Shown here piece by piece: positions 9,013 to 57,559 of a stretch of 64,000 bases of DNA. Both the position numbers and the translations under genes were made by a program. Under the pieces are notes generated by a model that was not told where the DNA came from, ran no database searches, and saw nothing but the letters and a program-made list of their open reading frames with translations. How positions within the stretch are numbered: the first letter of the stretch is position 1; each line of letters begins with the position of its first letter. The DNA is taken from positions 1 to 64,000 of IMG/VR virus record IMGVR_UViG_3300048813_000107, one strand, 5' to 3'. Origin of the DNA: a virus.

Positions 9013-9085
9013 AGCGGGTTGGCGCAGTTGGTAGCGCGATGGGCTCATAACCCGTAGGCCGCGGGTTCAAGTCCCGCACCCGCCA
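9013..9085 (+). tRNA. tRNA-Met (CAT), initiator-like
   Basis: The 73 bases fold as a standard cloverleaf: T8, A14, G18-G19, A21, 4-bp D stem, 5-base variable loop and a TTCAAGT T-loop. The anticodon CAT is at 9046-9048. Two features are typical of initiators: an unpaired first position (A1 opposite C72) and three consecutive G-C pairs at the base of the anticodon stem (GGG/CCC). C11-G24 is elongator-like, so identity is not certain, and tRNA-Ile2 with modified CAT cannot be excluded. No CCA is encoded. It lies between the early operon and the integrase. Confidence 0.85.
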
Positions 9086-9089
9086 CGTC

Positions 9090-9292: not shown

Positions 9293-10315
9293 TCAGAGCA
9301 CGCCGTCGAGCACGTCGATTAGCCAGCGGTCGGCATCCTCGATGTACCCGGACACGGCCCGCGAGCCAGCTTCCCATCCGCCTTGCCGTTCGATAGAGCG
9401 CCGTTCGGCGCCCGCCTGGTGCATGGCGGTGGCGAGTCCGCGGCGCAGGCTATGCCCGGACCACTTCCCGCCGAGTCCGGCCGAGATTGCGCATCGGTGG
9501 ATCACGTCCGCGATGGCCTGACCGGTCATGCGTCCGCCGCTGTCACCGATGGGAACGCCGTCGCGGACGACCTGATGGCCGATGCGACCGTGCCGGTCGA
9601 TCCGCACAAAGAGCGGGCCCTCCGCTCGCCCGGCCGCGGCGAGGACCTCTATCCACTCGGCCACGGCCCGGACGGGGCATACGTTCTTATCGGGCCGGTA
9701 CTGCACCACGGGGTCATCCATCTTGCGGGTCTTCTGCCGGTAGACGGAGACTTGAATGCCGCGGTCCTGGAAGTCGAGTTCCCCGATATCCAGGCTGGCG
9801 ATCTCGCCGCGGCGGCCAGCGATAGCGAATCCCAGGAGGACGATCGCAGCGTTCCGCTTACCTGCCGCGGTCGAGCGGTCGAGGATGGCCAGCATCGCGA
9901 CGAGTGAGCTGCGGCTGGCCGGGGTTGCCTTTCGCGGCTTGGCCTTGGGACTCTTGGATTTGGCCAGCGACTCCCGGTAGCCCTTGAGCACGCCGACCAG
10001 ACCGTCTGTGCTCGGCGGCGGCACCTCGGCCAGCGAGTGCCATTTGAGGATGGCCCACCGGGCCCGCTCGATCGAGACCGGAGTCCAGCCGCAGGTGTAG
10101 GCGGCATAGGTCGCGTACTCGGTGAGCGTCGTTCCGTCAGTCGGCAGGCCGCCGTGACCGTGCTCAGCGCACCATGCCGCGAAACGCTTGATGTCCTCGG
10201 TGTAGGCGCGGCGCGTTGATTCCGGCATCCCGGCGGCCACGGCTGCGTGGGCGGCCGGGGACAGCCGGGCCGGGGTTGCGACGCCCCGGCCCGGTGCGGC
10301 TACTTCTCCGGGCAC
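9293..10315 (-). CDS. Tyrosine integrase (site-specific recombinase)
   Basis: A 340-residue protein. The N-terminal part (residues 30-120) is the core-binding, SAM-like helical domain. The catalytic domain shows the arginine motif GRRGE (R168/R169), HSLRR (H288, R291), GGW (W314) and the likely nucleophile Y324 in SGYIEDADR. It would integrate or excise the element at an att site. The start is a GTG after GGAGGAACTGCA, overlapping the upstream gene by 16 bases, so the two are co-translated. A terminator follows, and the tRNA is only about 200 bases beyond, a usual neighbourhood for attP. Confidence 0.9.
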   Translation of the reverse strand: MPGEVAAPGRGVATPARLSPAAHAAVAAGMPESTRRAYTEDIKRFAAWCAEHGHGGLPTDGTTLTEYATYAAYTCGWTPVSIERARWAILKWHSLAEVPPPSTDGLVGVLKGYRESLAKSKSPKAKPRKATPASRSSLVAMLAILDRSTAAGKRNAAIVLLGFAIAGRRGEIASLDIGELDFQDRGIQVSVYRQKTRKMDDPVVQYRPDKNVCPVRAVAEWIEVLAAAGRAEGPLFVRIDRHGRIGHQVVRDGVPIGDSGGRMTGQAIADVIHRCAISAGLGGKWSGHSLRRGLATAMHQAGAERRSIERQGGWEAGSRAVSGYIEDADRWLIDVLDGVL

Positions 10316-11021: not shown

Positions 11022-12530
11022 ATGGGACTTACGCCTGAGCGGGCGATCCGTCAGACCCGCATCTCCGACGCCAGGGACGAGGAGACCAAGGGCGTCGACG
11101 CGCAGGGCACCGACTGCGACAACCGCGGTGCAGCGCTCGGCTGGCGTTTCGGTCCCGCCGCCACCCATCACATCATCGAGAACGACACGTCAGCTTTCAA
11201 GCGCAGGACCATAACCCTCCCGGATGGCCGGCGCGACACGCGCACGGTGCGCCCCGGATTCCGGGAGGCGCTGGCCATGCTCGCGGACGGCCGGGCGGAC
11301 GGTTTCATGGCCTACGACCTGGACCGGGTGTTCCGCGATCCCCGCGACCTTGAGGACATGATCGACGTCGTAGAGGCCTCGGCCCCCCGCATTCCCGTCG
11401 AATCGGTGACCGGATCCCTCCGGCTGGCCAACGACAGCGACATCACCATGGCCCGGGTGATGGTCGCGATGGCGAACAAGTCCAGCCGGGACACCGCGCG
11501 CCGGGTGGCCAGGGCCCGGCAGCGGCAGGCCGAGGAAGGCCAGTGGGGCGGCGGCAAGCGGCCGTTCGGGTTCGGGCCCGACGGGGTGACCCCCGACCCG
11601 GAGGAGACGGCCGAGATCCGCCGGGCCGCGGACGCGATCCTGGCGGGCGTGTCGCTGCGGCAGGTGACGGCGAGCCTGCGGGACCGCGGCGTGCCCACGG
11701 TCACCGGTGCGGCGTGGAGCACGGTCACGGTGCGGGACATGCTGCTGCGGCCCCGCAACGCCGCGCTGATGGTTTACCGGCCCGGCGGCGGACGCGGCCC
11801 GCGGCGGGCCCGGCTCTACACCGACGCCGACATCACCGGCACGGCGCCGTGGGCCCCGGTCATCCCGGAGGAAGCATGGCGGGCGGTCCGCGACATCCTC
11901 ACCGACCCGTCGCGCCGGCTCGGGCCCGGCAATACGCCGCGGTGGCTGGGCAGCCGGATCTACCGGTGCGGCATCTGCGATGACGGGTCAACGCTCGTCG
12001 TGTCCGGGAGCACCAGCAACGGCCGCCGGTACTTCCGCTACTTCTGCCGGGAGAAAGGCCACCTGGCCCGCGCGGCCGTCCCGTGTGATGAGTACGTCGG
12101 GGCGGTCGTCACGGCGTGGCTCGCGGGCCCGGACGGCCAGCGGGTCGCGTCACGCCCGGTGCAGGAGCACGACGGGCCGGATCCGCTGGAGCTCCGCCGG
12201 GAAGCGGCGGCGCTGCGGGAACGGCTGGACGAGCAGGCCCGGCTGCACGCGGAAGGCGTCATCGACGGGCAGCAGCTCGCGAAGGGGTCGGAGTCGGCCC
12301 GCTCGCAGCTGGCCGCGATCCAGGCTGCGCTGAACGGCATGTCGTGGCACAGCGCGCTGGACGGCATCGCGGGCAGCCCGGACGCCGCGCAGGTGTGGGC
12401 CTCGTTCGACCTGGGGCGCAAGCGGGCGATCCTGCGGGAGACCGTCACGGTGACCGTTCACCCGGCCGGCAAGCGCGGGAGCCGGTTCGACTACGAGACG
12501 GTCCTGTTCGGCCCCTGGCATCACCAGTAG
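11022..12530 (+). CDS. Large serine recombinase (serine integrase)
   Basis: A 502-residue protein. The N-terminal resolvase domain starts TRISDARDEETKGVDAQ, with Ser15 as the likely nucleophile, and includes AYDLDRVFRD. The recombinase domain follows (WGGGKRPFGFGPDG, RDRGVPTVTGAAWSTVTVRD). A zinc beta-ribbon starts at YRCGIC, with later FCREKGH and VPCDEY, and is followed by a coiled coil (ELRREAAALRERLDEQARLH). This is the complete architecture of phiC31-like integrases, though shorter than many. It would catalyse unidirectional attP x attB recombination. A second integrase of another class lies 700 bases away. Confidence 0.9.
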   Translation: MGLTPERAIRQTRISDARDEETKGVDAQGTDCDNRGAALGWRFGPAATHHIIENDTSAFKRRTITLPDGRRDTRTVRPGFREALAMLADGRADGFMAYDLDRVFRDPRDLEDMIDVVEASAPRIPVESVTGSLRLANDSDITMARVMVAMANKSSRDTARRVARARQRQAEEGQWGGGKRPFGFGPDGVTPDPEETAEIRRAADAILAGVSLRQVTASLRDRGVPTVTGAAWSTVTVRDMLLRPRNAALMVYRPGGGRGPRRARLYTDADITGTAPWAPVIPEEAWRAVRDILTDPSRRLGPGNTPRWLGSRIYRCGICDDGSTLVVSGSTSNGRRYFRYFCREKGHLARAAVPCDEYVGAVVTAWLAGPDGQRVASRPVQEHDGPDPLELRREAAALRERLDEQARLHAEGVIDGQQLAKGSESARSQLAAIQAALNGMSWHSALDGIAGSPDAAQVWASFDLGRKRAILRETVTVTVHPAGKRGSRFDYETVLFGPWHHQ

Positions 12531-15705: not shown

Positions 15706-16443
15706 ATGACCACACCAGAGCGCACCGAGACCGGCGGCCCGTCACGCACCCCCAGGAGCGAGATCACCGCCGCCGTGTCCGGCAACCGCAAGAAGGAGCC
15801 GGTTCTCCTGCTCGACCTGTCCACTTCGATGGACTGGGACGCGGCGCAGGGAGGGCCCGAGTGGAACGGCCAGGGCGGCGGCAGGCGCGGCATCGTCATC
15901 GAGGCCCTGCACGGCCTGGTTTCCGCGCTGGAAGCGGAGGACAGCGAGGCGGCGGCGGAGCAGGCCGGCGGCAGCGATGACCTCGGCGGGCTGCTGACGC
16001 ACGGCTTCGCCAGCGGTCACGTGGAGATCGGCGACCTGAACTCTTCCAACCTGGAGCGCAAGCTCAACGCGATCCAGTGGGGCGGCGCGACGCACATCAT
16101 GCCCGCGTGGAAGGCGGCCCTCGCGGACTACGACGAGGAGTTCGGCGACAAGGACCCCGACGAGCAGCCAACCCTGCTGACCCTGGTCCTGACCGACGGC
16201 GAGGCCGATGACTGGGCCGAGTTCGTGCCGGTACTGGAGAAGGCTAGCCCGAAGCGGGTGTTCGCGGTCGCGATCGTCGGCCACGGTACCGCCCATGACG
16301 CCACCGTCCGCGCCTACCAGCAGGCGGCCGAGCGGAACCGGTCGCAGGACAAGTACGGCAAGGAACACGTCAAGGTCGTGTCGTTCGACTCGGTGACTGA
16401 CCCGAAGGAGATCGCGGCGGACCTGATCACGCTGATCAGCTAG
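15706..16443 (+). CDS. von Willebrand factor A (MIDAS) domain protein
   Basis: A 245-residue protein. The metal-ion-dependent adhesion site is complete: DLSTS (D37, S39, S41), T129 in GGATHIMP, and D164 in LVLTDGEAD. The whole protein is one VWA fold without signal peptide or membrane segment, so it is a cytoplasmic metal-dependent protein-binding module, similar in design to TerY-type VWA proteins. It lies between DNA modification and polysaccharide genes but has hairpins on both sides, so it may be its own transcription unit. GAGGAATC precedes the ATG. Partner unknown. Confidence 0.85.
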   Translation: MTTPERTETGGPSRTPRSEITAAVSGNRKKEPVLLLDLSTSMDWDAAQGGPEWNGQGGGRRGIVIEALHGLVSALEAEDSEAAAEQAGGSDDLGGLLTHGFASGHVEIGDLNSSNLERKLNAIQWGGATHIMPAWKAALADYDEEFGDKDPDEQPTLLTLVLTDGEADDWAEFVPVLEKASPKRVFAVAIVGHGTAHDATVRAYQQAAERNRSQDKYGKEHVKVVSFDSVTDPKEIAADLITLIS

Positions 16444-16468
16444 CCCGGCCCGTTTCACCATCTCGCCG

Positions 16469-16552
16469 CCAGCCGGTCCCGGAGGATCGTTCAAAGCCTC
16501 CGGGGCTGGCTGGCTCCAGGATTCAGGGCCGCCTCGCGCAGGGCGAGGCGGC
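16469..16552 (+). terminator. Two hairpins after the VWA gene
   Basis: CCAGCC...CCGGAGG (16469-16485) pairs with CCTCCGG...GGCTGG (16497-16509), and GCCGCCTCGC (16528-16537) pairs perfectly with GCGAGGCGGC (16543-16552). They probably end the VWA transcript before the polysaccharide cassette; there is no T run. Confidence 0.6.
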
Positions 16553-16573: not shown

Positions 16574-17767
16574 GTGCCCGACAGAATTGCCACGCCGGTA
16601 CTGTGGCCACGTTTCACCGAGGCCCCGACCGTGCCGCTCCGCCGGCTGCGCACTGATACTGAGCCTGCCAGGCCTCCCTGGGACTGGTTCCGGCCGTCGC
16701 TGCCTAAGAAGGCATACCGGAAGGTAGTCGCGATCGTTCCTGCCTGCAACGAAGCTGACGCGATCACTGCGACAGTCCGGGCCTTGCGGCAGCAGAGCCG
16801 CGCTCCTGACCGCATCGTGGTGGCGGTGAATAACACCACCGACAACACCGCCGGGCTGGCCCGTGAAGCTGGGGCCGAGGTGATGATCCTCGCGGACAAC
16901 AAGTTCATGAAGGCCGGGGCGATGAACCAGGCCCTCGACGCGGTGATGCCGGGTCTTGATGACGAGGACATGGTGCTGATCCAGGATGCCGATACCTGCC
17001 TGAATCCGGACTTCACGAAGTACGCCGTCGAGGCCATGCGGCCTGGCATCGGCGGGGTGTGCGCCCGGTACGACAACCCGGCCCCCCGCAACCTCATCGA
17101 GCGGCTCCAGGCCAGCGAGTTCACCCGGTCGCGCCGGAAGATCTCGCGGGCCCGCGGGAAGGTCCTGATCCTGGTCGGCATCGCGACCCTGTTCCGGGTC
17201 GGGGTCCTGCGCCACGTCCTGGCCGCCCGCGAGGCCGGGGAGCTGCCTGGCAGCCGCACCTACTACAACCTGACCTCGCTGTGCGAGGACTACGAGATGA
17301 CCCTGGCCATGCGGACGCTCGGGTACAGGCTGACCAGCCCCGCCCGGTGCCGGCCGCTGACCCACGCGATGCCGACCCTGGGCAAGCTGCACGGCCAGCG
17401 GGTGCGGTGGACCCGCGGGGCCCTGGATGACCTCCAGGCCTACGGCCTGACCGGGATCACCCGGACCTACATCCTGGCGCAGGTAGGCCGTCTGCTTTCC
17501 ATGCTCTCGCCGGTCCTGTTCGCGGCCTACCTGCTCTCGCTCCAGCTCACCTACGGGCGCATCGTGTGGGACCTGCCCTGGGTGTGCGTCAATGCCCTGT
17601 TCATCGGCGAGCGGGTCATCACCGTGCGCTCAGCCGGCTGGAGGGCCATGCTGCTCTCGGTGCTGCTGCTGCCGGAGCTGGCTTACGACTGGTTCATGGC
17701 TGCGTGCTACCTGCAGGGACTGGTGCTGCACCTTCGCGGCACCGCCCCGGTATGGAAGGAGACCTGA
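16574..17767 (+). CDS. Processive family 2 glycosyltransferase (PgaC/BcsA-like)
   Basis: A 397-residue protein. It has a cytosolic GT2 domain with PACNEADAI, DAD (138-140), CED (237-239) and Q275-x2-R278-W279, the motif set of processive beta-glycan synthases (cellulose, chitin, poly-GlcNAc). Three C-terminal hydrophobic segments follow (about 298-327, 330-350, 358-388). The two N-terminal helices of PgaC are missing, so the 50-residue N-terminus is soluble. Downstream lie a one-helix peptide, a deacetylase and a GH16 enzyme in overlapping frames, so it probably makes an extracellular polysaccharide. The product sugar cannot be told from sequence; a poly-GlcNAc-like polymer fits the neighbouring deacetylase. 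Confidence 0.85.
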   Translation: MPDRIATPVLWPRFTEAPTVPLRRLRTDTEPARPPWDWFRPSLPKKAYRKVVAIVPACNEADAITATVRALRQQSRAPDRIVVAVNNTTDNTAGLAREAGAEVMILADNKFMKAGAMNQALDAVMPGLDDEDMVLIQDADTCLNPDFTKYAVEAMRPGIGGVCARYDNPAPRNLIERLQASEFTRSRRKISRARGKVLILVGIATLFRVGVLRHVLAAREAGELPGSRTYYNLTSLCEDYEMTLAMRTLGYRLTSPARCRPLTHAMPTLGKLHGQRVRWTRGALDDLQAYGLTGITRTYILAQVGRLLSMLSPVLFAAYLLSLQLTYGRIVWDLPWVCVNALFIGERVITVRSAGWRAMLLSVLLLPELAYDWFMAACYLQGLVLHLRGTAPVWKET

Positions 17768-17922
17768 TGTTCGGCGACACGATGACGCCGGATACGGCCC
17801 CCGGCATCCTCGGGCTGCTCGTGCTGCTGGTGACCCTGCTTTTCATCGGGCTGGCCCTGAACAGCCTAATGCCCCGCCCGGAGTGGCTGTACCGCCTGCT
17901 CACCAGGGAGAGGCACCGGTGA
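17767..17922 (+). CDS. One-helix membrane peptide of the polysaccharide cassette
   Basis: A 51-residue protein starting at a TGATG overlap. A single hydrophobic segment (GILGLLVLLVTLLFIGLALN) is followed by a basic tail. Its position between synthase and deacetylase recalls the small PgaD/IcaD partners of PgaC/IcaA, but sequence similarity cannot be judged at this size. The stop overlaps the next start. Confidence 0.65.
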   Translation: MFGDTMTPDTAPGILGLLVLLVTLLFIGLALNSLMPRPEWLYRLLTRERHR

Positions 17923-19028
17923 TATCTCCCCCGGCGCACCGCGGCATGCGGCGCTACCTGCTCGGCATCCCCGGCTCGATTCTTGGCCTCGCCGTCGTCG
18001 CCATCATTGTCGTCTCCGTCTGGCATCCCGGCACGAACCCGGCCGGGCCGGGGGCAAGCACCGACGGCGGCGGGCTGCCGGGAGCGCACCCGGGAGCGGT
18101 AACGGTCACCGTCCCGTACGTCCGCACCTACGTCCGCAAGGTCGCCCGCATCCCGGTGCTGGCCTGGCACCAGGTCATCGGCGGGGTCGCGGCGACGCCG
18201 GCCGAGGACGTGATCTGGAACTTCGGCAGGGACTGCAAGCCGTCCGCCGCGGTCTGCGATGCGCCGGGCAATCCCGAGACGGTCAGCCTGGCCCAGCTCG
18301 GCGCGGAGCTGGGATGGCTGAAGCAGCAGGGCTACCACTCCATCACGGCCGCCCAGTACTACGCCTGGGACGAGGGAAAAAGAGTCGCGCTACCGTCAAG
18401 GCCCATCTTGCTGACCATTGACGACGGCACGCTGAACTCCTACGTGAACGTCACCGCCGTGCTCCAGGAGTACGGCTACAGCATGGTCGCCTTTATCGTC
18501 AGCCAGTTCGCTGACGGGGCGGCCGCGAACCAGGAGCCGTACGCAGGGTGGGATGCCACCTGGGCGCAGCTGAAGGCACTGCCTGCTGCCCAGTGGTCTT
18601 TCGCCTTTCATGCCGGGGCGCACGGCCACAACGTGACGTTCCCGGATAACCCCGGCTGCACGTACTACTACCCGTGCCAGCTGCCGGGCGAGACGACCGC
18701 GCAGTATGAGCAGCGGGTGTCTGGTGAGATCAGCGCGGGCCGCAGGGCGGAGATGGCCGAGCTGGGCGCGCGGTTCGACACGGACATGTGGGCCGTGCCG
18801 TGGAACGATCTCGGCAACCAGCCGAACCTGCCCAGCGAGGGCACGGCGGGAACCTGGCTGGCGTCATGGGCGGCCACCCGGTTCCCGGTCATCTTCATCC
18901 AGGACCCGCTGCACAACGGGAAGCAGCACGAGCGGTACCGGCTGGAGATCCAGGGCACCTGGTCCCTGAAGACGTTCAAGAACAACTTCCTCAGCAATGC
19001 CCGGGACGGATTTTTCAACGCGAGATGA
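17919..19028 (+). CDS. Membrane-anchored polysaccharide deacetylase (CE4, PgaB-like)
   Basis: A 369-residue protein starting with GTG in a GTGA overlap. A signal anchor (about 13-35) puts the rest outside the membrane. The CE4 domain has TIDDG (166-170, the TFDDG motif) and FHAGAHGH (H231, H235, H237) as the metal site. The N-terminal PVLAWHQV resembles the start of PgaB/IcaB N-deacetylases, which act on poly-GlcNAc. Predicted to trim acetyl groups from the polymer made by the adjoining synthase. The C-terminal 130 residues complete the barrel. Confidence 0.8.
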   Translation: MISPPAHRGMRRYLLGIPGSILGLAVVAIIVVSVWHPGTNPAGPGASTDGGGLPGAHPGAVTVTVPYVRTYVRKVARIPVLAWHQVIGGVAATPAEDVIWNFGRDCKPSAAVCDAPGNPETVSLAQLGAELGWLKQQGYHSITAAQYYAWDEGKRVALPSRPILLTIDDGTLNSYVNVTAVLQEYGYSMVAFIVSQFADGAAANQEPYAGWDATWAQLKALPAAQWSFAFHAGAHGHNVTFPDNPGCTYYYPCQLPGETTAQYEQRVSGEISAGRRAEMAELGARFDTDMWAVPWNDLGNQPNLPSEGTAGTWLASWAATRFPVIFIQDPLHNGKQHERYRLEIQGTWSLKTFKNNFLSNARDGFFNAR

Positions 19029-19930
19029 CGGCGGGGAACGGGGAGTACACCCGCCGGCGGGCTCTCATGATGGGCCTGGCAGCACTAGACACCGTAGTTA
19101 TCGGCAGCGACGACACGCAAGGAGCCCCCATGACCGAGCAATCGACAGGCCCGGCGGTCTTTTCCCCGGACGGAAGCCACACGCATTCCGTCCCTACTCC
19201 GGCCCCGGTGCCGGCGCCGGTACCAATACCAAAGCCCTACACCTTCTTCGATGAGTTCAGCGGCGCGGCGGGCACCGCACCGGATCCGGCGAAGTGGGCT
19301 CCGCAGACCGGCCGGGGAATATGGGGAACCGGGGAGGTCGAGAACATGATCAACTCGACCACCACCGCTTACGTGGACGGGAACAGCAACCTTGTCATCG
19401 CGCTGGCCAGCGACGGTCAGGGCGGCTTCAACGGTGCCCGGCTGAACAGCAAGTTCAGCGGCTCGTACGGCACGTGGGTCATGCGCGCGCAGGTCCCTGT
19501 TGCTCTCGGCGCGTGGCCCGCGCTGTGGTTCATGGGCAACAAGGGGCAGTGGCCGGCTAACGGCGAGGTGGATCTGGTCGAGATCTACGGGCCGAACGTC
19601 AACGGCGGTCAGCTCCAGACCACCGTCCACAGCAGCGGGGCGAACGGCCAGCCCAGCTACTATGCCAACCGCGCTACGGACGGGAAGTTTCACGTCTACC
19701 AGATGGTCTACTCGGAGACTGGTTTCGTGTTCTCAGAGGACGGCACCCAGTACCTCGCCGTCGCCGAGTCGCAATTCCCGGCCGGCGGATACCCCTTCAA
19801 CGGCAACGGCGGGATGTACTGCATCCTCAACGTCGCAGCTGGCGGGGAAGGTCCTGGCGGGGCAGTCCCGCTGGCAGATGAGCTGCCGATCAGGATGCTC
19901 ATCGATTACGTCCACTTCACGGCGGCGTGA
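19025..19930 (+). CDS. Secreted GH16 glycoside hydrolase
   Basis: A 301-residue protein. The N-terminus TRRRALMMGLAALD resembles a twin-arginine signal, followed by a Pro-rich linker and a GH16 beta-jelly-roll. The catalytic signature EVDLVE is at 181-186 (nucleophile E181, D183, acid/base E186). GH16 enzymes cut or transglycosylate beta-glucans and galactans. An ATG at 19130 with a perfect AAGGAG would remove the signal, so the first ATG (ATGA overlap) is preferred. In this cassette it may remodel or release the polymer, or open the host wall polysaccharide. Confidence 0.85.
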   Translation: MTAGNGEYTRRRALMMGLAALDTVVIGSDDTQGAPMTEQSTGPAVFSPDGSHTHSVPTPAPVPAPVPIPKPYTFFDEFSGAAGTAPDPAKWAPQTGRGIWGTGEVENMINSTTTAYVDGNSNLVIALASDGQGGFNGARLNSKFSGSYGTWVMRAQVPVALGAWPALWFMGNKGQWPANGEVDLVEIYGPNVNGGQLQTTVHSSGANGQPSYYANRATDGKFHVYQMVYSETGFVFSEDGTQYLAVAESQFPAGGYPFNGNGGMYCILNVAAGGEGPGGAVPLADELPIRMLIDYVHFTAA

Positions 19931-19931
19931 C

Positions 19932-20480
19932 ATGCCGCCGCCGCCGGCCGGGAAGCATCAGCGCAAGAGATGGCGGCAGGCTGGCCTCTGGCTCCTCGCC
20001 GGCACCGCGGCGGGTGTTATCGTCACGGGCGCTGCTGTCGTCGTGCCGGGCGCCCGCCATGAGGTGGCCAGCGTGGCGGCCAGCGTGGTGCATCGTCATG
20101 GCGGGAACAGCAAGACCGCATCCCCGCCGCAGGTGACGCCGGCCATGCGGGTGCCTTTCGCCGCTCGCGTCGTGGCGGATCCGTCCCCGGCCAGGGCGGC
20201 AAGGGCGGCTGCCACGCCGAAACCTTCCAGGGTGCCAGCCAGCACACCGGTGCCGGGTGCTAGTCCGAACCCGGCCACCAGCCCTACCGCAACACGGCGG
20301 ACCCAGACGCCGACCAGCCCGCCGCCGATCCTGAACACAACCGCCACCAGCAGCCCGACCACCTCGAGCCCGAGCCCGACGCCCGACCACGGCCCGACCA
20401 CGACGCTCTCGTCCTCGCCGCCAGTTAGCCCGCCCGTCTCGGCGACTTCCAGTGCTCCGGCAAGCCCCCCGGCGTCCTGA
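19932..20480 (+). CDS. Membrane-anchored Pro/Ser/Thr-rich surface protein
   Basis: A 182-residue protein. A basic N-terminus (GKHQRKRWRQ) and one hydrophobic segment (about 17-41) are followed by roughly 120 residues rich in Pro, Ser and Thr, as in wall-spanning stalks. No catalytic part and no LPxTG. It ends the polysaccharide cassette and could be an anchor or spacer. Low-complexity composition makes family assignment impossible. Confidence 0.65.
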   Translation: MPPPPAGKHQRKRWRQAGLWLLAGTAAGVIVTGAAVVVPGARHEVASVAASVVHRHGGNSKTASPPQVTPAMRVPFAARVVADPSPARAARAAATPKPSRVPASTPVPGASPNPATSPTATRRTQTPTSPPPILNTTATSSPTTSSPSPTPDHGPTTTLSSSPPVSPPVSATSSAPASPPAS

Positions 20481-20512: not shown

Positions 20513-20553
20513 AACGCCCCGCCGCTGCCCGGTAAAGGCAGCGGCGGGGCGTT
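20513..20553. terminator. Strong bidirectional terminator
   Basis: AACGCCCCGCCGCTGCC (20513-20529) and GGCAGCGGCGGGGCGTT (20537-20553) form a perfect 17-bp stem with a 7-base loop. It sits between the rightward polysaccharide cassette and the end of the leftward late operon. Confidence 0.85.
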
Positions 20554-54105: not shown

Positions 54106-54443
54106 GCGGCCCCCTCAGGCGTCGGCGCTCCCGTGGTGACCCAGGCCGCCGATAGCGAGCGCATCGTCGTTCGCGAACAGGGCCTTGATATCGGCCAGCG
54201 GCAGGCCGTCCAGCGTGATCCAGCAGGAACACAGCGCGGTTGCCGAACACATCTCGCCGCAGTCCTCGCAGCGCCACGGCGGACACTCGCCGCAATGCAG
54301 CGACGGGGACAGGTCGGTCGGGTCGTCCGAGAGCGAGTGCTTGACCGCGCCACAGTTCCGGCACGCCAGGATCGGCGTCAACGCCTGCTCGGCCGGGTCA
54401 AGCTGCTGCCACTCCCAGCCGTGGACCGGCTCATTCATCAGGC
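54098..54443 (-). repeat. TCAGGC direct repeats flanking an inserted gene
   Basis: TCAGGC occurs at 54098-54103 (start of the Nudix-MuF gene) and 54438-54443 (end of the portal gene). On the minus strand both contain the codon CCT followed by GA in the frame of their gene. Removing the 340 bases between them joins the two genes in frame and restores LMLQRAVEPDPAAGKFEIPG. Confidence 0.6.
54115..54438 (-). CDS. Zinc-finger protein inserted between portal and Nudix-MuF genes
   Basis: A 107-residue protein. Its ATG lies in the last codons of the portal gene and its stop is ten bases before the Nudix-MuF start, so it fills the interruption completely. Cysteines: CRNCG, then CGECPPWRCEDCGEMC and CSC, enough for two or three zinc ions. 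Short acidic helical C-terminus. It resembles the zinc microproteins of the early region more than any structural protein. Function unknown. Confidence 0.65.
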   Translation of the reverse strand: MNEPVHGWEWQQLDPAEQALTPILACRNCGAVKHSLSDDPTDLSPSLHCGECPPWRCEDCGEMCSATALCSCWITLDGLPLADIKALFANDDALAIGGLGHHGSADA

Positions 54444-57400
54444 TCTACCGCCCTTTGCAGCATCAGCACCCGGCCAGTGTCCGCAGCAAGGACAGCAAGC
54501 CCCGCCACGGCTACCTCGCCAGCAGCCTTGCGGACAGCGAGCCTGCCGCCGTCGTTGAGGTTGTGCGCCTGTACCGGGCCGACCGCGCGGAACTCGAAGT
54601 CGTGCCACTCCCCGGCCTGCCGCCGCTTCCTGCGGAAGTTCCTGAACACGGTGAGCTCGGACTTCACCGCCGCAGTGCGCGCGGCCTCCTCGTCCACGGC
54701 GACGACATAGTCCGGGATGATGACCTGCGGCTTGCCGTCGTCATCCTCGCCAGGTCCGTCGTAGCCGTAGATCCCGGTGTCGCTGGTGATCCCCGCCGTG
54801 GGTGCGCCTTCGCCTTCCTTGGCGACCGTCCCCGGCTGCTGCGGTCCTGCTGGCGGCAGGGCGGACGGGCCGTACTCCTGCTCGGCCAGCGGCTCCCCGA
54901 TCAGCGGCGGGGACGTGACGACGCCCTCGACGGTGGTGAATGCCTGATGCGGCAGGGAGGCCCCCGGCTCGGGCGCGGCCGTCGCCTCGTCTACCGGGCC
55001 CGCGACCGAGTCCAGCGAGATCAGCGGGATCGGCCCGGCGCGGGAGGAGAAGATAAACCGCGGCACCGGGACCGGATCGGACCAGCCCCACCGCTCCTCA
55101 CGGACCTCGCTGGTCGACACGGTGCCGTTCTTGATGTAGATGTCATCAGCCTGCGCCTGGGCCAGCCGGTCGTCCTGCTCCTCGCCGCGGTCGAACTGGT
55201 GCTTCAGCGGCAGCCCGAGGTCATCCTGCAGGAACCCGGTGATGATGCCCTCGACGTGGTTCTCCAGCGGCAGCTCGCCGACCTTGTGCACCACGTCGGC
55301 CTGCGACTCGCCAGATGACCTGTTGACATCCTCCGTGAATCCGAGGTCGCTAGGCACCGTGTGATAGGCGGCCAGCGTCTTGCGCATCAGGAACAGGCTG
55401 AACTGGTCGCTGAAGTCCTTCTCGTTGCTCCACGCGAACTTGGTACCGGGCGGCATCCACTTGATCTGGTGCTTGCCAGCCTGGTCGCCGTACATCATCG
55501 CGTCCCAGTAGACCTGGAACGCCTCGATCTGGTCGGGGCTCCAGGTCTCCGGGGCCGCGGCGAAGGCAGCAGGAAGATTGCCGGCTGTGAACCGTTCCAA
55601 AAAGTAGAGCTGGAACCTCATATCGGTGTTGGCGCACCATGATGGATAGCCATTCCTGCGCACATACAGCGTCTTGTTGGGAACGCTTACGCAATAGACC
55701 TTGCCCTCATAGGGAACGGGCTCAACGTCGATGCGATAGGCCGGCTTACGGCGAGTCTGGATTTGCCACCGCTGGTGATGGGCCGGCTTTGCCGGCTTCC
55801 CCACAGGACGCACCGCCCCAGAATAACCGATCTTCTGCAAAACCTCCTGCAGGCCATCTGCGAGGCGCTTGCTGCACGTGGACACGATCTCCGTGCGAGG
55901 ATAGATGGCCCCGTCACCCAGGACGTAGAAGTGCCAGAAAATCTCAAGCTGGCGCCGGGACATCCCGAGCACCTCGCGCGGGATGTACTTCTCATGCGCC
56001 TTCCCGAATGGCCGCAGGTAGTCGGCCAGCGCCGTATGGCCGAAAGTGAAGGCGCCCCGGTGATACGGGGCTTCGCGTCCGAGCATCCGCGCCAGCAGAT
56101 CGCGGAACTCCACATAGCCCTTGGAGAACTCCTCCTGCGCGATGGTGATGTTCGAGCAGTCTGGCCTGACGCATCCCTCCGACAGGTACATGCCCATGAA
56201 GGCGGCGAAGTCGTCGCCTTCAATGCGGCTGCTGAAGTAGTGCGCGTCTTCCCGGATGACGCCGCGAGGCAGTCCGTAGGCATCGCGGATAGCTTCGGCC
56301 GACGCCCGGCGCAGGCGCTCGCCTCTTTCCGCCCGGCGCAGTGTGGGATGAGTGATGCCGAGGCTGCAAGCCGGGAAGCCGGCGTTTGCCCGCGCCTCGC
56401 GCACCGCCTCCCCGTCCATGCGCACGAAGTCGCACGGGCTGACGGGAAGCGTGAAGCACTCAAGGTCGGGGGCGCTCCAGGTGCTCGTCGCCGGGCACCT
56501 GACGCCCGCTCCCCCGCCGGGAAGCGCGGACTGGTACTCGTAGAGGTCCGCGGCGTGAACCAGCCATTCGCTGCCGTGCCTGACGCCCGGACAGCCGCTG
56601 GGCAGGCGGTTGACCAGCAGCCGGTGGCCGCCGGTGACGAGCAGGTCCGCGTTCCTGGACGCGGCGTGGTACATGATGCCGTCGGAGTCGGCCTCGTAGT
56701 ACCTGGTCGCCGATTGCCACTCAAACGCAGCGGTCGCGGGATTGCGCGTCGCGAACCTGTCTGAGCTGATGTCCGCCTCTGCGAACCGCAGCCAGCCGCG
56801 GTCTGTCAGAACCTCGGTGTCGTCGCTGTAGCAGTTCGCGTTCAGGATTATGCTTTCCAGTGGCGCGTACCCATACAGCGAGTTCGGGCGCGGACGGAAT
56901 GGCTCGTAGATAATATCGTCCCTGGTCAGCCAGTTCCAGGGCAGGCCATTGACGTACTGAACATACGCCTCCGCAGGCGGCTGAGGCGGATTCCCCCAGT
57001 AGTCCAACAATGGCGCTATTGTCGTTCCGTCGATCACACTCAAGCCTACCACTTTACCGCCGCGATTACGCAGCCGGTAAAGCGCTCCCGCATCATAAGC
57101 GAGAATGTCATAAAGGTATTTGGCAAGCCACGTGCTGAACGAGCTGATCCGGTCGGGCTTCTTCAGTGCGACCATGCCGATCTTAACGGCATCCTCGACG
57201 TCGCTATTGAATCCGTCGGCCGCGACCAATTTCCAGTCCAGTGACCGGATTGAGTCGATGCGATGCCAAATCGCGATCTGCGCGATGTCATAGGAGTCGA
57301 CCAGCCCGCGGAGCGTCTCGAAGCTGACCCGCTCGTGGATCCTGGGCCGGGTGGCAATGTTCGTCCCGGTGACGAAATCCTGTGACCTCGGGCGACGGTC

Positions 57401-57559
57401 GTAGCCGTCATAGGGTCCGATGGGCGTACCGGGCGAGAACGGGGACGCCGGGGTCATCTGCGAGGCTTCTTCGCCCTCGCGGAACGACTCCGGCGTGCCG
57501 GGGCCGAACACCTTGGCGACGCGGGTCAGGCCGTCATGGATGCGGGAGCGGACGCCCAT
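54431..57559 (-). CDS. Portal protein with intein and N-terminal half of a Nudix domain
   Basis: A 1042-residue precursor. GAGGGGG lies before ATG 57559. Residues 1-242 are the portal N-terminal region (SYDIAQIAIWHRIDSIRSLD, DAGALYRLRNRGGKVVGLSV, IIYEPFRPRPNSLYGYAPLE). Residues 243-644 are an intein. Portal sequence resumes at TDMRFQLYFLERFTAGNLPA and includes PSDLGFTEDVNRSSGESQAD. The last 45 residues (EVAVAGLAVLAADTGRVLML then QRAVEPDE) are the opening strands of a Nudix fold, continued at 52633. After splicing the protein would be 640 residues. It forms the dodecameric DNA portal. Confidence 0.85.
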   Translation of the reverse strand: MGVRSRIHDGLTRVAKVFGPGTPESFREGEEASQMTPASPFSPGTPIGPYDGYDRRPRSQDFVTGTNIATRPRIHERVSFETLRGLVDSYDIAQIAIWHRIDSIRSLDWKLVAADGFNSDVEDAVKIGMVALKKPDRISSFSTWLAKYLYDILAYDAGALYRLRNRGGKVVGLSVIDGTTIAPLLDYWGNPPQPPAEAYVQYVNGLPWNWLTRDDIIYEPFRPRPNSLYGYAPLESIILNANCYSDDTEVLTDRGWLRFAEADISSDRFATRNPATAAFEWQSATRYYEADSDGIMYHAASRNADLLVTGGHRLLVNRLPSGCPGVRHGSEWLVHAADLYEYQSALPGGGAGVRCPATSTWSAPDLECFTLPVSPCDFVRMDGEAVREARANAGFPACSLGITHPTLRRAERGERLRRASAEAIRDAYGLPRGVIREDAHYFSSRIEGDDFAAFMGMYLSEGCVRPDCSNITIAQEEFSKGYVEFRDLLARMLGREAPYHRGAFTFGHTALADYLRPFGKAHEKYIPREVLGMSRRQLEIFWHFYVLGDGAIYPRTEIVSTCSKRLADGLQEVLQKIGYSGAVRPVGKPAKPAHHQRWQIQTRRKPAYRIDVEPVPYEGKVYCVSVPNKTLYVRRNGYPSWCANTDMRFQLYFLERFTAGNLPAAFAAAPETWSPDQIEAFQVYWDAMMYGDQAGKHQIKWMPPGTKFAWSNEKDFSDQFSLFLMRKTLAAYHTVPSDLGFTEDVNRSSGESQADVVHKVGELPLENHVEGIITGFLQDDLGLPLKHQFDRGEEQDDRLAQAQADDIYIKNGTVSTSEVREERWGWSDPVPVPRFIFSSRAGPIPLISLDSVAGPVDEATAAPEPGASLPHQAFTTVEGVVTSPPLIGEPLAEQEYGPSALPPAGPQQPGTVAKEGEGAPTAGITSDTGIYGYDGPGEDDDGKPQVIIPDYVVAVDEEAARTAAVKSELTVFRNFRRKRRQAGEWHDFEFRAVGPVQAHNLNDGGRLAVRKAAGEVAVAGLAVLAADTGRVLMLQRAVEPDE
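55628..56833 (-). other. Intein with LAGLIDADG homing endonuclease in the portal gene
   Basis: 402 residues. It begins with Cys1 (CYSDDTEVLTDRGWLRFAEA), has the block B TGGH (DLLVTGGHRLLV), two LAGLIDADG-type helices (AAFMGMYLSEGCV and FWHFYVLGDGAI, with acidic residues in place) and the C-terminal blocks GKVYCVSVPNKTLYVRRNGY then WCAN. The C-extein starts with Thr. The usual penultimate His is replaced by Ala (CAN), seen in some active inteins. Flanking text LNAN/TDMRF rejoins smoothly. Confidence 0.85.

What the first reader, a model, noticed from the sequence alone, without database searches (positions are those of the whole stretch)
16574..20480. Phage-encoded exopolysaccharide synthesis and remodelling cassette
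Seen: overlapping rightward genes for a processive GT2 synthase (DAD, CED, QxxRW), a 51-residue one-helix protein, an anchored CE4 deacetylase with TIDDG and a His cluster, a GH16 enzyme with EVDLVE, and an anchored stalk protein, closed by a perfect terminator. Known: pga/ica loci pair a PgaC-type synthase with a PgaB-type deacetylase and a tiny membrane partner; Streptomyces Mat proteins combine similar activities. Inference: a complete lysogenic-conversion system that makes, deacetylates and trims a surface polymer, possibly blocking superinfection or altering aggregation and biofilm.
Basis: partly seen in the sequence, partly recalled or inferred. Interest (0 to 1): 0.8.

Follow-up and report, generated by a model that had tools for sequence, protein, structure and literature searches.

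The report
Phage operon building a surface polysaccharide
A virus of soil actinobacteria carries a compact set of genes that looks able to make a sugar-polymer coat on its host, strip acetyl groups from it and cut it; the same trio in the same order turns up in three other viral contigs, two of them with unrelated or distant parts, so it is probably a real recurring system, although the polymer and its purpose are untested.

Summary
At 16574-19930 four overlapping rightward genes encode a membrane GT2 synthase, a 51-residue one-helix protein, a membrane-anchored PgaB-like CE4 deacetylase and an exported GH16 laminarinase-type enzyme. They sit between strong hairpins inside an unquestionable phage genome (74-kb IMG/VR record). 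The fifth 'stalk' gene is doubtful: weak coding signal, absent from the sister phage.

The main new result is that GT2-CE4-GH16, in that order, recurs in three other viral contigs. One (L003) is orthologous (53-62% identity). Two (L028, L119) have a distant GT2 (26%) and a different, NodB-type CE4. The bacterial relatives of that second GT2 include CE4-GT2 fusions of MatB layout; MatAB makes PNAG in Streptomyces (PMC5972031). So the trio was assembled at least twice, which supports a joint function. The window synthase folds like hyaluronan/cellulose synthases over its full length.

It works like ica/pga/mat loci but passes no PgaC/PgaB family cut-off, and the GH16 is new to such loci. The tiny partner belongs to a wider GT2-microprotein pairing in actinobacteria and their phages, often with an LAxTG motif.

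Polymer identity, lysogenic conversion and superinfection exclusion remain untested. New variant of a known kind; interest about 0.6.

The parts
16574..17767 (+). GT2 membrane polysaccharide synthase (397 aa); no N-terminal membrane helices, C-terminal membrane helices; DAD, ED, QxxRW
   Evidence: Pfam/NCBIfam; AF2 model pLDDT 86.6; hyaluronan/cellulose synthase fold; catalytic residues invariant in 72 homologues
17767..17922 (+). 51-aa one-helix membrane partner, basic C-terminal tail; position of the GT2-linked microprotein (no LxxTG in this one)
   Evidence: helix, coding score 0.215, GC3 0.92; equivalent ORF after 18/18 phage GT2 genes examined, including this one
17919..19028 (+). Membrane-anchored PgaB-like CE4 polysaccharide deacetylase (GTG 17919 or ATG 17946)
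   Evidence: Pfam PF01522; NCBIfam PgaB 58.8 bits; PDB profile search best hits PgaB, E 3e-9; 62% identical homologue in L003
19025..19930 (+). Exported GH16 endoglucanase/laminarinase-type enzyme with RRR-containing (Tat-like) N-terminus and Pro-rich linker
   Evidence: Pfam PF00722; PDB best hits beta-1,3-glucanases, E 3e-38; homologues in L003, L028, L119
19932..20480 (+). Doubtful fifth ORF: N-terminal helix plus Pro/Ser/Thr-rich 'stalk'; not counted as part of the conserved cassette
   Evidence: codon score -0.05 per codon; no family match; absent after GH16 in L003
16468..16552 (+). Two strong hairpins between the upstream 245-aa gene and the synthase; probable transcription boundary
   Evidence: 18-bp stem 16468-16514 and 10-bp stem 16528-16552; z -4.8
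20513..20553 (.). Perfect 17-bp hairpin between the cassette and the convergent late genes; probable bidirectional terminator without T-run
   Evidence: z -6.5, 0 of 200 shuffles as stable

Best explanation
A phage accessory operon that makes and remodels an extracellular polysaccharide on its actinobacterial host. The GT2 protein, held by its C-terminal helices and helped by the 51-residue one-helix partner, polymerises a UDP-sugar (most likely GlcNAc) on the inner face and passes the chain through the membrane (inferred from fold and motifs). The anchored CE4 enzyme removes acetyl groups outside (inferred). The exported GH16 enzyme cuts or rearranges the glucan or glycan matrix (inferred; the least certain step). 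The net effect would be a phage-directed surface coat during lysogeny or infection. Shown here: gene content, overlapping order, phage context, family and fold assignments, conserved catalytic residues, and recurrence of the trio. Not shown: expression, polymer, phenotype.
For: Synthase model aligns over its whole folded part, membrane helices included, with Chlorella virus hyaluronan synthase (Z 26.1, 321 residues, rmsd 3.0) and E. coli BcsA (Z 24.2, 327 residues, rmsd 3.5). Best named families are PgaC/IcaA for the GT2 and PgaB for the CE4. CE4 and GH16 carry N-terminal export or anchor segments. The same trio, same order, occurs in L003 and, with a distant GT2 and a different CE4 type, in L028 and L119. 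The two CE4 families do not align as profiles, so the trio was probably put together more than once. Bacterial relatives of the L028 GT2 are in 21 of 21 fused cases CE4-then-GT2 proteins, the layout of MatB, which with MatA is needed for PNAG in S. lividans (PMC5972031). Small partner: one-helix ORF after 17/17 other phage GT2s against 11/242 control genes.
Against: A non-processive GT2 (PcManGT) also aligns well (Z 24.4), so fold does not prove polymerisation. GH16 relatives are beta-1,3-glucanases, which are not known to cut poly-beta-1,6-GlcNAc; either the polymer is not PNAG or the GH16 acts on another glycan. CE4 metal site is unusual: the canonical HxxxH second His is Ala in L003, and L003 has TTDDS instead of TIDDG. 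Neither GT2 nor CE4 nor GH16 reaches an NCBIfam equivalog cut-off. No promoter match was found (actinobacterial promoters are poorly covered).
Confidence: 0.7

Rival explanations
1. Wall modification rather than a new polymer: the GT2 adds single sugars to a wall polymer, lipid or protein, the CE4 deacetylates peptidoglycan (PgdA-like), and the GH16 trims host glucan. The outcome would still be an altered receptor or lysozyme-type resistance.
For: Non-processive PcManGT and glucosyl-3-phosphoglycerate synthases match the fold; the CE4 of the second lineage resembles NodB, PdaB and PgdA; the synthase lacks the N-terminal helices of known polymerases; phage GtrB-type converters match the GT2 weakly (phrog_841).
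Against: QxxRW and ED motifs plus full-length match to translocating synthases; PgaC/IcaA is the best named family over all 12 members scanned and PgaB, not PgdA, is the best match of the window CE4.
Confidence: 0.17
2. The CE4 and GH16 are depolymerising enzymes that help adsorption or release through host matrix, with the GT2 an unrelated neighbour.
For: Phage GH16, CE4 and GT2 genes are reported singly in mangrove soil viruses (PMC6460857); lysis and tail genes lie just downstream on the other strand.
Against: Overlapping co-directional genes with the synthase, N-terminal anchors or signals rather than tail-fibre domains, opposite strand to the structural genes, and the synthase retained with CE4 and GH16 in four contigs of two lineages.
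Confidence: 0.08
3. Host chromosome segment, or bacterial wall genes misassembled into a viral contig.
For: The GT2 family is widespread on actinobacterial chromosomes (80 loci).
Against: Phage genes on both sides, an identical synthase in a second contig (L002), a diverged syntenic phage (L003) with endolysin next to it, no close CE4 relative in the genome scan nor in 395 class-level genomes, same codon usage as the phage.
Confidence: 0.02

Closest known systems
MatAB of Streptomyces (matA, matB; PNAG-like matrix; PMC4391728, PMC5972031)
   Same: CE4 and PgaC-like GT2 functions together with a separate membrane protein in an actinomycete; relatives of the second-lineage phage GT2 are CE4-GT2 fusions of the MatB layout.
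   Different: Domains are separate genes in the phages; window CE4 is PgaB-like, MatB's is PgdA/NodB-like; the phages add GH16; the window GT2 is only 26-27% identical to the lineage that is close to the fusions.
icaADBC / pgaABCD poly-beta-1,6-GlcNAc loci
   Same: Synthase (IcaA/PgaC), small membrane partner (IcaD/PgaD) and surface deacetylase (IcaB/PgaB).
   Different: Scores 53.7 of 422 bits and 58.8 of 322 bits against the curated cut-offs; partner has one helix and 51 aa; no porin or IcaC; GH16 present.
Viral hyaluronan synthase of chloroviruses
   Same: A virus-encoded membrane GT2 polymerase; best structural match (Z 26).
   Different: About 11% sequence identity; lacks the N-terminal helices; eukaryotic algal virus; accompanied here by CE4 and GH16 rather than sugar-nucleotide genes.
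Glycosyltransferase plus ~50-aa membrane protein pairs of Microbacterium cluster EC and other actinophages (PMC7302621, PMC12614000)
   Same: Homologous GT2 (up to 41% identity) followed directly by a one-helix protein.
   Different: No CE4 or GH16 there; cluster EC phages carry UDP-glucose dehydrogenase instead; their microproteins bear LAxTG, the window's does not.

Membership tests
PgaC/IcaA PNAG synthase (TIGR03937) | Score above the curated equivalog cut-off (422 bits) | tested here: not met
   53.7 bits, though the named family hit by all 12 members scanned
PgaC/IcaA PNAG synthase (TIGR03937) | GT2 catalytic D, DxD, ED and QxxRW motifs with membrane helices | tested here: met
   Invariant D138, D140, E238, D239, Q275, R276, W279; model helices 294-388
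PgaC/IcaA PNAG synthase (TIGR03937) | N-terminal transmembrane helices before the GT domain | tested here: not met
   No hydrophobic segment before residue 194; homologues in phages start at the GT domain
PgaC/IcaA PNAG synthase (TIGR03937) | Makes poly-beta-1,6-GlcNAc | not testable with these tools
   Needs biochemistry
PgaB/IcaB deacetylase (TIGR03938, TIGR03933) | Score above curated cut-off | tested here: not met
   PgaB 58.8 bits of 321.9; IcaB 14.4 of 248
PgaB/IcaB deacetylase (TIGR03938, TIGR03933) | CE4 DD motif and two metal-binding His | tested here: inconclusive
   TIDDG and HAGAHGH in the window; only first and last His shared with L003; AF2 model too poor to judge (pLDDT 37.5)
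CE4 superfamily (PF01522) | Score above Pfam gathering cut-off | tested here: met
   25.0 bits, cut-off 23.1; the L003 homologue falls below (17.2)
GH16 (PF00722), laminarinase type | Pfam cut-off and E-x-D-x-x-E active site | tested here: met
   56 bits, cut-off 22; E181, D183, E186 invariant; PDB best hits beta-1,3-glucanases
MatB | CE4 and GT2 fused in one protein | tested here: not met
   Separate genes in the window and in L028/L119
Hyaluronan/cellulose synthase structural class | GT-A domain plus interface and membrane helices in the same arrangement | tested here: met
   Z 26.1 over 321 residues and 24.2 over 327; PcManGT at 24.4 shows the class is not exclusive to polymerases
LAXTG small protein (NF058583) | LAxTG or LPxTG motif before the single helix | tested here: not met
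   Window protein has APGILG; 14 of 18 phage partners do carry the motif

The most novel reading that the evidence does not exclude
GT2 plus microprotein is a split polysaccharide synthase: the catalytic chain lacks the N-terminal helices of known polymerases and the 50-residue one-helix protein supplies a missing channel helix. In most phage members the microprotein is also a minimal sortase substrate (LAxTG/LPxTG just before the helix, basic tail after it), so the polymer or its peptide handle could be fixed to the cell wall. Phages have taken up this unit several times, and in two lineages a GT2 has been joined with a deacetylase and a GH16 enzyme as a ready-made coat kit.
Probability: 0.15. 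Interest if true: 0.85.

Novelty: new variant of a known kind. Interest (0 to 1): 0.6.

Why it matters
Phage-directed conversion of surface polysaccharides is well known for single enzymes that decorate an existing polymer (GtrB, acetylases). A phage operon that appears to make a polymer and also deacetylate and cut it is, in the literature searched here, undescribed, and its independent assembly in two phage lineages makes the functional link testable. If confirmed it would show temperate phages dictating matrix and aggregation of soil actinobacteria, and would give a small, clean system for asking why a synthase needs a small membrane partner, an open question for MatA and relevant to IcaD and PgaD.

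Tried and rejected
AF2 model of the CE4 from two sequences: pLDDT 37.5, discarded. Genome-wide scan for close CE4 relatives: none; 395 class-level genomes: none at 1e-8 (only five candidates per genome were scored and there was no positive control, so weak evidence). Idea that the Streptomyces GT2 loci are prophages: neighbours look like ordinary chromosomal genes. Search for GH16 or CE4 of the cassette in isolated phages: no close match. Idea that the window's small protein is itself a sortase substrate: no LxxTG motif. Rfam: no RNA family in the region. GT2-CE4-GH16 in bacteria: none among loci held; GT2 with CE4 nearby occurs in Embleya (L115) and Pseudonocardia (L065), without GH16. Long-branch rows make deep joins of the GT2 tree unsafe, so only 'several captures' is claimed. 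Metagenome contigs could not be scanned.

Full report
What is there. The window is part of a 74,380-base IMG/VR virus record. It has terminase (phrog_38, E 8e-95), portal, tape measure, endolysin, a serine integrase (11022-12530, phrog_95, E 1e-59) and a second, tyrosine-type recombinase (9293-10315), so it is a phage and probably temperate. The terminase is closest to those of a Microcystis phage and of Arthrobacter and Glutamicibacter phages, 50-57%. The cassette lies at the end of the rightward early genes (helicase, DNA methyltransferase, a 245-aa protein with a DLSTS metal-site-like motif) and faces the leftward late genes. Hairpins flank it on both sides: 16468-16552 (z -4.8) and a perfect 17-bp stem at 20513-20553 (z -6.5). 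This is the usual layout of a phage accessory unit (a 'moron').

The four genes overlap by one to four bases and share the phage's codon usage. The fifth ORF has a codon score near zero, is Pro/Ser/Thr-rich, and has no counterpart in the sister phage, so I leave it out.

Synthase. Pfam and NCBIfam place it in GT2 with PgaC/IcaA as best named relative (53.7 bits, cut-off 422). D138, D140, E238, D239, Q275, R276 and W279 are invariant in 72 homologues. A model from a 60-sequence alignment is good (pLDDT 86.6). It matches Chlorella virus hyaluronan synthase over 321 residues at Z 26.1 (rmsd 3.0), BcsA over 327 at Z 24.2 (rmsd 3.5), and a non-processive mannosyltransferase over 287 at Z 24.4 (rmsd 3.6). 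So the fold is that of the translocating synthases, without excluding a non-processive enzyme. The match to the viral hyaluronan synthase starts at its residue 79; hydropathy finds no membrane helix ahead of the catalytic domain. That known polymerases have such helices there is established knowledge, not a test made here.

Small partner. In 18 of 18 phage GT2 loci a 48-77 residue protein with a hydrophobic helix and a basic tail follows the synthase; control genes in the same loci have such a neighbour in 11 of 242 cases. In bacteria 69 of 80 loci have one. In 14 of 18 phage cases and 19 of 80 bacterial loci the protein bears L[AP]xTG a few residues before the helix; shuffled sequences predict 0.4 and 0.8, and no control neighbour had it. 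NCBIfam has a model for such proteins, LAXTG_small_WW, hit weakly and below its cut-off by two bacterial or phage members. I found no paper linking them to a glycosyltransferase. The window's protein and that of L003 keep the place, helix and basic tail but not the motif.

Deacetylase. The best solved relatives are PgaB proteins (E 3e-9); Pfam CE4 is just above threshold. The DD pair and two His are shared with L003, but the spacing departs from classical CE4, so activity is likely, not certain. It is anchored by an N-terminal helix; the L003 version has a lipobox-like LTGC.

GH16. Clear family member with a laminarinase-type active site; best PDB relatives are beta-1,3-glucanases. It has an RRR-containing, Tat-like N-terminus and a Pro-rich linker, also seen in L003 (RR) and L028.

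Recurrence. L003 (64.8-kb viral contig) has GT2 (53%), small ORF, CE4 (62%) and GH16 (56%) in the same order, with an endolysin on the other strand further down. L028 (122-kb contig) and L119 (84-kb contig) have GT2, CE4 and GH16 in the same order. L028 has a 173-aa ORF between GT2 and CE4. Their GT2 is 26-27% identical to the window's. Their CE4 has NodB motifs (TFDDGPD, HTxxH, WRxPY, HDG) and does not align with the window CE4 as a profile (both profiles are thin). Their GH16 is 38% and 33% identical; L119's GH16 was recognised by alignment and by PDB hits, not by Pfam. The trio was therefore probably assembled or re-assembled at least twice. Three further findings fit: relatives of the L028 GT2 occur in 63 of 395 class-level genomes; CE4 precedes GT2 in all 21 fused cases inspected; and MatAB has a published PNAG role (PMC5972031).

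Origin. On a quick tree the phage GT2 copies fall in several places among actinobacterial chromosomal ones (at least four changes). The window and L003 are sisters (support 100) with no close bacterial relative, so that capture is old or from an unsampled host.

Mechanism and confidence. The best reading is synthesis, deacetylation and trimming of an extracellular glycan (0.7). Within that, a GlcNAc polymer is favoured by PgaC, PgaB and Mat kinship, while the GH16 points to a beta-1,3-glucan; the evidence here does not settle it. Whether it acts in lysogens, blocks other phages or changes aggregation is inference only.

Verdict. 'Complete', 'stalk protein' and 'lysogenic conversion' go beyond the evidence. 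New variant of a known kind.

Noticed in passing
L004-L006, L008, L009, L012-L016, L019, L022, L023, L027; L034-L113: A GT2 synthase is followed by a ~50-aa one-helix protein, often starting MYG/MYN and carrying LAxTG or LPxTG before the helix, in actinobacterial chromosomes and several phage groups, one (L027) apparently of a low-GC host.
   Followed up: partly
L028 4740-8428 and L119 4652-7936: Two large viral contigs carry a second GT2-CE4-GH16 cassette with a NodB-type deacetylase; their GT2 is kin to bacterial CE4-GT2 (MatB-layout) fusions.
   Followed up: yes
window 54431-57559: Predicted portal gene of 1042 aa matches portal profiles at both ends and thymidylate synthase and ribonucleotide reductase profiles between them, which suggests an intein.
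   Followed up: no
window 9013-9086 and 9293-10315: A tRNA-Met gene lies next to a tyrosine recombinase, while a serine integrase sits at 11022-12530: two recombinase systems in one phage.
   Followed up: no
window 15706-16443; L021 273-1049; L028 2229-2963: A ~245-aa gene with a D-x-S-x-S-like motif sits just upstream of the cassette; a protein with a similar beginning lies near the GT2 in L021, and a VWA-like protein near the one in L028. No Pfam match.
   Followed up: partly
L004 6078-8792, L006 6082-8887: Microbacterium cluster EC phages have the GT2-microprotein pair a few genes ahead of a UDP-glucose dehydrogenase (and, in L004, a second glycosyltransferase), as if supplying UDP-glucuronate.
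   Followed up: no
L115 5746-8071: Embleya megaplasmid: GT2 of the same family followed by a secreted CE4, a bacterial two-enzyme counterpart without GH16.
   Followed up: partly
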